Shown here: piece by piece, positions 29,390 through 32,984 of the stretch | Position numbering within the stretch: position 1 is the stretch's first letter | Layout: the number at the start of each line of letters is the position of its first letter | DNA from: a candidate division WWE3 bacterium | GTDB lineage: Bacteria; Patescibacteriota; WWE3; UBA101185; UBA10185 | Length of the DNA stretch: 32,984 bases | Assembly: GCA_003599255.1 (NCBI GenBank) | Contig: QZJF01000005.1 | Span: forward strand, 1 to 32,984 | Direction of reading: 5' to 3' | The notes under the pieces: generated by a model | Database searches by the model: none | The model's input: only the letters and a program-made list of their open reading frames with translations | Told to the model about the DNA's origin: nothing | Made by a program: the position numbers and the translations under genes

Positions 29390-30301
29390 ATGATACAACT
29401 TGAAGAAAAACTTTATACGTCAACCGAAGTCGCTGAAATTTTAGGTGTAAGTTTAAGATCTGTTTACAGATATTTAGAAGAAAATAAACTCCAAGCGGAG
29501 GTAAAGACTGCAACTGGCAGACATAGATTTTCCAAGCAAAATATACTTGATTTCTTATACCCTAATGGAATAGATAAGCCCGCAGTTACACTTGAAGAGA
29601 AGAAAGAAACTCTAGGTCAGACAAAAGTGACACTAGACGAAAATATAGTTGAAAAAGATACAAATGTTGAAGAAACTAACCAAGATGAGAATGTTTTGGA
29701 AACACCTGAAGAGGAGCCAATCGATTGGTTAGCAAAATTTAGAGAAGCGGCCAAGAAATTTAGAGAAGAGTCTGACGAGCAGCCTGCTGCGGAAGCTGCG
29801 GTAGAACCCGTGACCCAGCCTGATGAACCTAAAGTAGTAGAAGTAATTGAACAGGAATTTGTGCAAGAGACAGTCACTCAATTTTCCGAACCCGTAAAAC
29901 CCAAAGAAGCCGTTTCCAATAAATACTATTATAGAAGCGGGTTGGGTGGTCTAAAGGATATTGCCCAAAACATTGATAAAAATTCAAGAACATCTTTTTT
30001 AGATTATGCGTTTACCCTAAATGCTGGTTTGTCGCTTTTCAAACCCATTAAGCCTTTCTCCATGCTTCATGTGTATGTAAGACCCAATGATCTTTCCTTT
30101 TTCGAGAAAACATTGGCACTTACACCTAGCGAAGAAAGCAATGCACAGCTTTGCCTGTTGGTGTCAGATGACAATGCCATCTATTCCGGGCGTGAAGAAC
30201 TCCACGGACTCTTTGTAGTCTCTAAGGAAAGATTATCACACGATATAAAAACAATAGGGGATGGCGCCCTTTCATCTGAAGCTCAGTCAGTACTGGGATA
30301 G
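29390..30301 (+). CDS. HTH (MerR/excisionase-type) DNA-binding protein with acidic linker and C-terminal domain
   Basis: 'LYTSTEVAEILGVSLRSVYRYLEENKLQAEVKTATGRHRFSKQNILDFLYP', then E/P-rich linker. Confidence 0.78.
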   Translation: MIQLEEKLYTSTEVAEILGVSLRSVYRYLEENKLQAEVKTATGRHRFSKQNILDFLYPNGIDKPAVTLEEKKETLGQTKVTLDENIVEKDTNVEETNQDENVLETPEEEPIDWLAKFREAAKKFREESDEQPAAEAAVEPVTQPDEPKVVEVIEQEFVQETVTQFSEPVKPKEAVSNKYYYRSGLGGLKDIAQNIDKNSRTSFLDYAFTLNAGLSLFKPIKPFSMLHVYVRPNDLSFFEKTLALTPSEESNAQLCLLVSDDNAIYSGREELHGLFVVSKERLSHDIKTIGDGALSSEAQSVLG

Positions 30302-30360
30302 CGCTTGATTTTCCAAAGTTATATATAGGCATAAAAATATTTGATAGAATGGATACACTT

Positions 30361-31926
30361 ATGGCCTTTACTCAGAAGAAAAGTAAGGTTCGCGAAGAAG
30401 AACAGGAAAAAACAAGAAGTCTTAAGATCTTGTTAGTTGCAACGGAAGCCGCTCCCTATGTTACAGTAGGTGGAGCGTCGGCCGTTATAAATCATTTATC
30501 AAAATCTCTTCAGTCACTGGGACATTCTGTAGCTATATTTATCCCCAAATTTGGTTTTATTGACGAGGAAAAATATGGTATTGAGATGGTATATGAGGGT
30601 TTACAAGTTCCGACTGATGACGAAAATATCCCTTTTTTAACCTGCAACGTTAAATGTGCCAAATGCGAAGCAGGCATGCCCATATATTTTCTGGAGAATC
30701 AGGAGTATTACGAAAAGCGCGCAAACGTATATAGTTACAGCGATGACCCGACAAGGTGGACCTTGTTATCCAGGGGAGTTCTTGAGTTTGTTTCAAAAGG
30801 GATTTTTGTTCCGGATGTTATTCACTGTAACGATTGGCACACAGGGATAGTTCCCAATTATTTAAAAACTGCTTACGTAAAAGATCCGATACTATCAAAT
30901 ATTGCCACAGTATATACCATTCATAATCTCGCGTTTCAAGGGATGTTTGATCACAAACATGTTACTGAAATGGATTACGATGACGGCAAATCTCCGGTCG
31001 CATCATTTTTCTCGCCACGGCTGAACAAACAGAATTTCATGAAAAGAGGAATCATTTATGCGGATGCGGTAAATACCGTATCCAAGACGTATTCAAAAGA
31101 AATTCTTACTCCGGAGTTCGGAGAAGGTTTGGATAAACTTTTACTTGAGTTAAAAGGAAAGATCTTCGGTATAGTCAACGGGATTGACTATGAGGAGTTT
31201 GACCCGGCTAAAGATAATTTTATTGAAAAGAACTTTTCTATTGATACCTTAGAAGATCGCGCGGAAAACAAAGTTGCTGTACAGAAAGAATATGACTTGC
31301 CGGTGAAGCCGGAAGTTCCTGTCTTTGGTTTTGTGGGTAGGCTGGACAATATGAAGGGAGTGGATTTAATGGTTCAGACTCTGAGGCATGTGTTAAATGA
31401 TTACGAAATTCAATTTGTTCAGGTTGGGGGCGGTGACGGAGGTCTGGCCGAGATGCTAAGACAACTGAAAAATGAGTATCCCGGAAATGTAGGCATTCAT
31501 CCTTATCCCAATTTCACTCTTCCTCGTTTGTTGTTTGCCGGTTGTGATTGTATTTTATATCCATCCCGATTTGAGCCTTGTGGTATTGTCCAGATAGAAG
31601 CGATGAGATTTGGGGCTATCCCAATTGTCCGCAGAGTAGGGGGACTTGCAGATACAGTAAAGGACTTTGATTCCGGGACCGGAGCAGGTACGGGTTTTGT
31701 GTTCAATAAGTTTAATGAGTTCTCTTTGTATGGGCAAATTGTTCGGGCGATAGAAATATATAAAAACAAGCCGCTTTGGCTGAAACTTCAGAAAAATGCT
31801 ATGAGATCAGACTTCAGCTGGGAATATAGCGCAAAAGAGTACGTCAAGCTATATGAACGCGCCCTCACTTTTAAGACTAAATCCAACATCCGCGAGCGTT
31901 TATATGCTCATACACAACGCATGTAA
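30361..31926 (+). CDS. glgA: Glycogen/starch synthase (GT5)
   Basis: 'LKILLVATEAAPYVTVGGASAVINHLSKSLQSLGH', 'VIHCNDWHTGIVPNYLKT', 'GFVGRLDNMKGVDLM', 'ILYPSRFEPCGIVQIEAMRFGAIPIVRRVGGLADTV'; ATG 30349 overlaps the -10, so ATG 30361 preferred. Confidence 0.92.
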   Translation: MAFTQKKSKVREEEQEKTRSLKILLVATEAAPYVTVGGASAVINHLSKSLQSLGHSVAIFIPKFGFIDEEKYGIEMVYEGLQVPTDDENIPFLTCNVKCAKCEAGMPIYFLENQEYYEKRANVYSYSDDPTRWTLLSRGVLEFVSKGIFVPDVIHCNDWHTGIVPNYLKTAYVKDPILSNIATVYTIHNLAFQGMFDHKHVTEMDYDDGKSPVASFFSPRLNKQNFMKRGIIYADAVNTVSKTYSKEILTPEFGEGLDKLLLELKGKIFGIVNGIDYEEFDPAKDNFIEKNFSIDTLEDRAENKVAVQKEYDLPVKPEVPVFGFVGRLDNMKGVDLMVQTLRHVLNDYEIQFVQVGGGDGGLAEMLRQLKNEYPGNVGIHPYPNFTLPRLLFAGCDCILYPSRFEPCGIVQIEAMRFGAIPIVRRVGGLADTVKDFDSGTGAGTGFVFNKFNEFSLYGQIVRAIEIYKNKPLWLKLQKNAMRSDFSWEYSAKEYVKLYERALTFKTKSNIRERLYAHTQRM

Positions 31927-31944: not shown

Positions 31945-31973
31945 TTGACAAACCTATATGTTTTTGCTATTAT
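31945..31973 (+). promoter_or_regulatory. Promoter TTGACA-17-TATTAT for the intergenic RNA
   Basis: TTGACA 31945-31950, TATTAT 31968-31973. Confidence 0.82.
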
Positions 31974-31979
31974 GCAAGG

Positions 31980-32083
31980 GTAATTTTTGGGAGGCCTCTC
32001 CTGGAAGGGACATTAAAGTTTCTTAAACTGTGGGCAGGAGTTTACGAAACCGTCTCTTTCAGGGTAGACCTCCTAATTTTTTT
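31980..32083 (+). ncRNA. Candidate rod-shaped small RNA (unassigned family)
   Basis: Nested helices: 31987-31994/32069-32076, 32000-32011/32052-32063, 32018-32022/32046-32050, 32024-32029/32039-32044; apical loop GTGGGCAGG; seven Ts at 32077-32083; own promoter. Confidence 0.75.
32077..32083 (+). terminator. Poly-T tract ending the structured RNA (Rho-independent-like)
   Basis: TTTTTTT directly after the closing helix ...CCTCCTAA. Confidence 0.65.
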
Positions 32084-32091
32084 AGAAGGTT

Positions 32092-32120
32092 TTGACATAA
32101 ATACTCATTTAGGCAATAAT
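32092..32120 (+). promoter_or_regulatory. Promoter TTGACA-17-AATAAT for GH57 gene
   Basis: TTGACA 32092-32097, AATAAT 32115-32120, ATG at 32136. Confidence 0.75.
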
Positions 32121-32135
32121 TTACGATGTGAACCT

Positions 32136-32984
32136 ATGAACTTAGCTTTTGTTTTGCATTTATATCAACCGCCGACTCAAAGTGAGTCTGCACTAAAAAC
32201 CATTGTCGCTGAATCTTATATTCCGCTTCTTAAACTTATTAAAAATAAAAGTGACACTTCGTTTACGTTAAATGTACCTTTGAGTGTACTCGAATTGCTT
32301 GATAAGTATGGCTATACAGAGGTAATAAATACAATTAAGGATTTAGTAGAGCTAGAAAAAATCGAGCTTACCGGATCAGGAGCATACCATCCTCTGCTTA
32401 CTAAAATTAGTGAGAAGAATGTATATCAACAAATCATACTCAATGAGTACGGACAAGGCTACTATTTTGGAGCTCGGCAGGGATTTGAGGGAGAAAATTC
32501 AATACTCATCAAAAATTTAAAAGGATTTTTTCCTCCGGAATTATGTATTAATATGAAATTAATTGATATTCTCAATGACTTAGACTATGAATGGGTGCTG
32601 ATAGATTCCTCAGCTCTAGATGAAAATTCGGAGGGTTCTATCTTTAAAGTGGGGGGACACAAAATAAACCTGGTAAAAAGAGACACCGATTTAAGTAATA
32701 TTTTAGCTTTTAAAAGAGACGCGGTAATAGACGACATAGTTAAATATGTCATGAATTTACGTACAGAGGCAGCAGTTATAGCGTTAGACGCTGAGACATT
32801 CGGACATCATAATAAAGATGGCATTTATCTTTTAGATTTGCTTATCGATAAACTTCATCAAATTAATGTCAAAATCATAAATATAAGCACACTTGTTTCA
32901 CAAACAGAGTCAAAGGATATAAATACAGTACTTGAATCGACATGGGCATTTGAAAAAGGAGGTATACATATGGATATATATCGC
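32136..32984 (+). CDS. GH57-family glycoside hydrolase, 3'-truncated by window end
   Basis: Open frame of 283 codons to window edge: MNLAFVLHLYQPPTQSE..., 'IELTGSGAYHPLL', 'AAVIALDAETFGHHNKDG'; absent from ORF track because no stop is present. Confidence 0.82.
   Translation, partial: MNLAFVLHLYQPPTQSESALKTIVAESYIPLLKLIKNKSDTSFTLNVPLSVLELLDKYGYTEVINTIKDLVELEKIELTGSGAYHPLLTKISEKNVYQQIILNEYGQGYYFGARQGFEGENSILIKNLKGFFPPELCINMKLIDILNDLDYEWVLIDSSALDENSEGSIFKVGGHKINLVKRDTDLSNILAFKRDAVIDDIVKYVMNLRTEAAVIALDAETFGHHNKDGIYLLDLLIDKLHQINVKIINISTLVSQTESKDINTVLESTWAFEKGGIHMDIYR

What the first reader, a model, noticed from the sequence alone, without database searches (positions are those of the whole stretch)
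31945..32087. Self-contained promoter / rod-like RNA / poly-T unit between glgA and the GH57 gene
TTGACA-17-TATTAT predicts a TSS near 31980. The following ~97 nt fold into one long interrupted hairpin: TTGGGAGG/CCTCCTAA; CCTGGAAGGGAC/GTCTCTTTCAGG (12 bp, two G-U); GTTTC(T)TAAACT/AGTTTA(C)GAAAC; 9-nt loop GTGGGCAGG. Seven Ts follow, then an independent promoter for GH57. I see neither the SRP RNA GGAA tetraloop with its conserved flanks nor a clear 6S architecture. It could be a new small RNA family, perhaps tied to glycogen metabolism.
Basis: partly seen in the sequence, partly recalled or inferred. Interest (0 to 1): 0.75.

Follow-up and report, generated by a model that had tools for sequence, protein, structure and literature searches.

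The report
New rod-shaped small RNA in WWE3
Between two sugar-polymer genes, a group of tiny uncultured bacteria (WWE3) carries a previously undescribed RNA gene that folds into a long rod with an almost unchangeable nine-letter tip; it stays even in a relative that has lost the glycogen genes around it, so it probably has a job of its own.

Summary
Window 31945-32083 holds a promoter, a ~100-nt rod-shaped hairpin and a T-run. The window lies in a WWE3 (Katanobacteria, CPR) genome. A covariance model finds the same RNA exactly once in 24 of 27 genomes of the family and nowhere else in the phylum sample. In all 24 it lies directly upstream of a GH57(-like) gene. 32 of 35 base pairs show compensatory double changes (92% of cells paired; 72% shuffled, 41-50% slid). 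G-U pairs outnumber A-C 91 to 9, so the + strand RNA is what is selected. TTGACA is exact in 24/24. Eight of nine apical-loop bases ([G/U]UGGGCAGG) are invariant. Rfam 15 has no match. GH57 has its own promoter, its -10 ending 6-7 nt before the start codon in most genomes, so the RNA is not its leader.

The tie to glycogen is only partial. Five genomes keep the RNA although glgA is gone from the locus and the adjacent GH57 has lost catalytic motifs; in a complete genome (G011) glgA and the second GH57 are absent altogether. Best reading: a new stand-alone structured small RNA family whose invariant loop is probably a protein-binding site. Partner unknown; expression untested.

The parts
31945..31973 (+). 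Promoter P1 of the small RNA: TTGACA-N17-TATTAT with extended -10 TG
   Evidence: exact TTGACA at 16-17 nt spacing in 24/24 homologous loci, TG before -10 in 21/24
31980..32083 (+). Predicted ~104-nt transcript (TSS inferred from the -10 position, 3' end from the T-run)
   Evidence: sequence; not measured
31987..32076 (+). Rod-like hairpin, 34 covarying pairs plus one loop-closing candidate
32012..32017 (+). 5' side of the asymmetric internal loop ATTAAA (opposite one C at 32051); present in the main subgroup, missing or short in divergent members
32030..32038 (+). Near-invariant apical loop GTGGGCAGG (consensus [GU]UGGGCAGG, 8 of 9 positions invariant in 24 genomes)
32077..32083 (+). Seven-T run, intrinsic-terminator-like 3' end
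   Evidence: at least 5 T in an 8-nt window after the stem in 19/24 loci, absent in G008
32092..32120 (+). Promoter P2 of the GH57 gene (TTGACA-N17-AATAAT), placing its TSS close to the start codon
   Evidence: in most family genomes the GH57 -10 ends 6-7 nt before the start codon
30349..31926 (+). glgA-like glycogen/starch synthase (GT5), upstream neighbour
   Evidence: Pfam PF08323
32136..32984 (+). GH57 gene (cut by the window end; continues to 33371 of the contig), invariable downstream neighbour
   Evidence: Pfam PF03065; synteny

Best explanation
This is a discrete, single-copy, stand-alone noncoding RNA of about 100 nt, a new family restricted to one family of WWE3 bacteria. It is transcribed from its own strong sigma-70-type promoter, folds into a near-blunt rod and ends at an intrinsic terminator; the GH57 gene behind it starts from a separate, nearly leaderless promoter. 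The stem is selected for shape only; the near-invariant loop [GU]UGGGCAGG at its tip is the working part. I think most likely the rod presents this loop to an RNA-binding protein (as a decoy or as part of a ribonucleoprotein) that acts on the neighbouring GH57(-like) gene or product. Shown here: conservation, structure, strand, promoter sequence, synteny, persistence without glycogen synthesis. Inferred: transcription, loop as protein site, and the link to the neighbour.
For: Found once per genome in 24/27 family genomes. 32/35 pairs with compensatory changes on the CM-fitted alignment and 26/35 on an unfitted MAFFT alignment. G-U 91 vs A-C 9 shows the + strand RNA is selected, not a DNA palindrome or the minus strand. 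P1 exact TTGACA in 24/24, its -10 ending 5-24 nt before the stem base. GH57 -10 at 6-7 nt before its start codon in most genomes, so the RNA is not its leader. Loop 8/9 invariant while stem sequence turns over. RNA always directly upstream of GH57(-like), even where glgA is gone. Complete genome G011 keeps the RNA without glgA or second GH57. CCTGCCCAC occurs only once in G012, in the RNA itself, and CCTGCCC occurs only once outside the RNA in 24 loci of up to 10 kb, which argues against a shared full-loop antisense target.
Against: No expression data. No protein partner identified; CsrA, the classical GGA-loop binder, is absent. T-run weak or missing in about 5 of 24 loci. Shared absence of RNA and GH57 in three genomes is at locus level at least in G014, which lacks the whole gene cluster, so it does not prove a specific RNA-GH57 link. 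Synteny may simply be inherited.
Confidence: 0.5

Rival explanations
1. A trans-acting antisense small RNA: the G-rich loop pairs with C-rich stretches of target mRNAs, the rod only protecting and displaying it.
For: A near-invariant single-stranded loop on a variable stem fits a seed. Partial matches are frequent: 7-nt CCTGCCC occurs dozens of times in G011.
Against: The 9-nt complement is absent from G012 outside the RNA itself, and CCTGCCC occurs once in the 24 neighbourhoods, so no shared full-loop target; no conserved target position seen in the neighbourhood.
Confidence: 0.2
2. A cis-regulatory leader: RNA polymerase from P1 reads through the hairpin into GH57, and the hairpin with its T-run is a conditional terminator or a protein-controlled attenuator.
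For: The RNA is always directly upstream of GH57(-like); in G008 there is no T-run and GH57 starts 12 nt past the model end; T-run weak in several loci.
Against: GH57 has its own promoter with -10 at 6-7 nt from the start codon in most genomes; no alternative antiterminator pairing is apparent; a 34-bp rod is more than a terminator needs.
Confidence: 0.18
3. Only a transcription terminator or insulator for the upstream glgA operon, with a chance promoter.
For: Hairpin plus T-run just behind glgA.
Against: Conserved dedicated promoter in 24/24, near-invariant loop, and retention where glgA is lost are not explained.
Confidence: 0.06
4. A diverged housekeeping RNA (SRP RNA or 6S RNA).
For: Single copy, own promoter, rod shape; no RF00169 or RF00013 match elsewhere in this genome.
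Against: No SRP protein M domain in 57 phylum genomes and no GGAA domain-IV motif; no central 6S bubble; not found in sister families; at least one family genome lacks it along with the whole locus.
Confidence: 0.05

Closest known systems
Bacterial small SRP RNA (4.5S, RF00169)
   Same: ~100-nt rod-like hairpin, own promoter, single copy
   Different: No covariance-model match; lacks GGAA tetraloop and domain-IV internal loops; partner Ffh absent from the phylum sample
6S RNA (RF00013)
   Same: Long interrupted rod from its own transcription unit
   Different: Half the length, no large central bubble, no model match
CsrB/RsmY-type CsrA decoys
   Same: Hairpin loop with AGGA, location near glycogen genes (Csr controls glycogen in E. 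coli, PMC5666160, title and abstract as listed)
   Different: One loop only; CsrA absent from 27/27 family genomes
Single-loop protein-binding hairpins (for example iron-responsive elements, phage coat-protein operators), from general knowledge
   Same: Invariant apical loop on a helix selected for shape
   Different: Those lie within mRNAs; no partner known here; resemblance of logic only, not tested as homology

Membership tests
Any Rfam 15 family | Covariance-model match | tested here: not met
   No match at the element for the window (E up to 10) or for five diverse homologues (E up to 5)
SRP RNA | RF00169 match | tested here: not met
SRP RNA | Ffh M domain (PF02978) encoded in the genome | tested here: not met
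   0 of 57 genomes of the phylum, 14/14 control genomes positive
6S RNA | RF00013 match / central open bubble | tested here: not met
   structure
CsrA-sequestering RNA | CsrA present; several exposed GGA loops | tested here: not met
   PF02599 absent in 27/27; one loop
cis leader / riboswitch of GH57 | Lies inside the GH57 transcript | tested here: inconclusive
   Separate P2 in most genomes argues against; read-through not measurable here
Stand-alone structured small RNA | Own promoter, conserved structure with covariation, 3' terminator | tested here: met
   (T-run in 19/24)
Stand-alone structured small RNA | Discrete transcript | not testable with these tools
   no RNA-seq

The most novel reading that the evidence does not exclude
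The RNA and the GH57-derived protein encoded next to it form a ribonucleoprotein: in WWE3 an ancestral glycogen enzyme became a partner of a newly born RNA, and in lineages that dropped glycogen synthesis the protein survives as a catalytically dead RNA partner.
Probability: 0.12. Interest if true: 0.88.

Novelty: new variant of a known kind. Interest (0 to 1): 0.62.

Why it matters
I found no description of small RNA families in WWE3 in the searched literature. This one has dense covariation evidence, a dedicated promoter, an almost immutable loop, and a datable origin: sister families mostly have glgA followed directly by GH57 with nothing between. Its survival next to a catalytically broken GH57 in a complete glycogen-less genome means it has a function not explained by glycogen, in a lineage of ~1 Mb genomes that apparently also lacks SRP. 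The loop sequence gives a simple bait for finding the partner.

Tried and rejected
Rfam for window and five homologues: nothing at the element. SRP RNA and 6S in the genome: none. Ffh: none in the phylum sample. CsrA partner: none. Loop as antisense: no shared 9-nt target. Wider distribution: phylum sample 0 outside the family; refined model R2 on sister families and other classes gave one weak hit (L153, E 8.8e-5) and several at E > 0.01; the three inspected (L153, L154, L160) are other hairpins or nothing, without the loop. Three non-WWE3 hits of the loop pattern (L084, L088, L092) are of the number expected by chance and their genomes gave no R2 match below E = 0.28. First alignment mixed strands and was discarded; the palindrome is long enough for MAFFT to align the wrong strand. 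Small inner hairpin CUG-UGGG-CAG in the loop: rejected because G001/G022 (C-G for U-A) and G009 (A-U for C-G) support the outer closing pairs, and the variants with U at the first loop position break it. Specific RNA/GH57 co-loss: weakened, because G014 lacks the entire locus. Literature searches found no description in WWE3.

Full report
OBSERVATION. The window carries, between a glgA-type GT5 gene (30349-31926) and a GH57 gene (from 32136), the unit described: TTGACA-17-TATTAT (31945-31973), a 90-nt rod (31987-32076) with apical loop GTGGGCAGG (32030-32038), seven Ts (32077-32083) and a second promoter (32092-32120). RNAfold gives -41.5 kcal/mol; the rod alone has z = -5.2, and 24 homologues average z = -7.4.

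IDENTITY OF THE GENOME. The genome is 1.1 Mb in 25 contigs. A 20-nt pattern of the loop region hits 16 contigs in the named genome collection; 13 are candidate division WWE3 or unclassified Patescibacteria, the other three are about the number expected by chance.

DISTRIBUTION. DNA search found 16 of 57 relatives; a covariance model from them (R1) finds the RNA in 24 of 27 genomes of the same family, at one place per genome (second hits are the same palindrome read from the other strand at far lower score), and in none of the other-family genomes of a 287-genome phylum sample. A refined model (R2) finds nothing convincing in sister families.

STRUCTURE IS SELECTED. On the 24-sequence alignment 92.3% of cells pair against 71.9% after shuffling and 41-50% after sliding; 32 of 35 pairs have at least one compensatory double change; none of 500 shuffles reaches any of the five measures. 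That alignment is fitted to the model, but the unfitted MAFFT alignment of 16 gives the same picture (26 of 35 pairs, 90.9% paired). G-U pairs number 91 and A-C mismatches 9, which fixes the + strand transcript as the selected form. The near-invariant part is the tip: [G/U]UGGGCAGG, closed by U-A and C-G pairs that themselves change in a compensatory way in G001, G022 and G009. The mid-rod asymmetric loop is absent or short in divergent members.

TRANSCRIPTION UNIT. All 24 loci have an exact TTGACA, 16-17 nt spacing and a good -10 ending 5-24 nt before the stem base, 21 with extended TG. A T-run follows the stem in 19 of 24. The GH57 gene has its own -10 ending 6-7 nt before the start codon in most genomes, i.e. 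a leaderless mRNA from P2 (in this window the leader would be about 9 nt). So the RNA is best read as its own unit; transcription itself is inferred.

SYNTENY AND GLYCOGEN. In all 24 genomes the RNA sits directly upstream of GH57(-like), normally behind glgA, inside a block PEGA / MreB or other / WecG / HTH_17 / glgA / RNA / GH57 / GH57 / GT5. In five sister-family loci glgA runs straight into GH57 with nothing between; two others (L115, L121) have an intergenic gap but no such RNA. In five genomes (G016, G022, G024, G002, G011; three genera) glgA is missing from the locus, a second GH57 is not found genome-wide, and the remaining GH57-like ORF has lost catalytic motifs: the nucleophile region PPE reads PAH, PTG, PSY or PTK in four (kept in G002), and the DAETFGHH block is gone in all five. 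Yet the RNA is intact there, and in G016 it is among the best-scoring. For the complete 897-kb genome G011, tblastn finds no glgA, no GT5 and no second GH57 anywhere. The three family genomes without the RNA have no GH57 either, but G014, read in full, lacks the whole block, so this shared absence is a locus-level fact.

MECHANISM. An unconstrained stem with a near-invariant loop is the signature of a loop that is recognised by something. A shared full-length antisense target is unlikely. CsrA is absent, SRP protein is absent. I therefore favour recognition of the loop by an unidentified RNA-binding protein, with the neighbouring GH57(-like) gene or product the most likely client. Confidence that this is a real, structured RNA gene is about 0.95; that it is stand-alone about 0.75; that the loop binds protein about 0.5; the neighbour link is weaker.

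NOVELTY. Not in Rfam 15, not found in the searched literature (open-access papers only). It is a new family within the known kind 'bacterial structured small RNA'.

LIMITS. No expression data; E-values from short calibration; genomes are mostly MAGs; relatedness inflates counts of cells, though less so the number of distinct pairs with double changes; the genome-wide absence of glgA was checked in G011 only.

Noticed in passing
G000 and 56 other phylum genomes: No SRP protein M domain (PF02978) in any of 57 genomes, several over 99% complete, while all 14 controls ring; own genome has only a sub-cut-off PF00448 match and no RF00169. The SRP pathway seems lost in this lineage.
   Followed up: partly
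L053, L060, L061, L063, L065 (G016, G002, G022, G024, G011), first ORF after the RNA: GH57-like ORFs that keep an open reading frame but have lost catalytic motifs, in genomes without glgA at the locus: candidate pseudo-enzymes.
   Followed up: partly
window 32115-32136 and the same place in the other loci: The GH57 mRNA looks leaderless: -10 box ends 6-7 nt before the start codon in most WWE3 genomes.
   Followed up: yes
window 31945-31973 and P1 of the other 23 loci: The spacer of the RNA promoter is itself conserved (roughly TTGACAnnCCTATAAnnnnTTGNTATAAT), a possible family-specific promoter signature or operator.
   Followed up: no
window 29390-30301: A 303-aa HTH_17/MerR-like protein is encoded just upstream of glgA and remains the upstream neighbour of the RNA in genomes that lost glgA; a candidate regulator or partner.
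   Followed up: no
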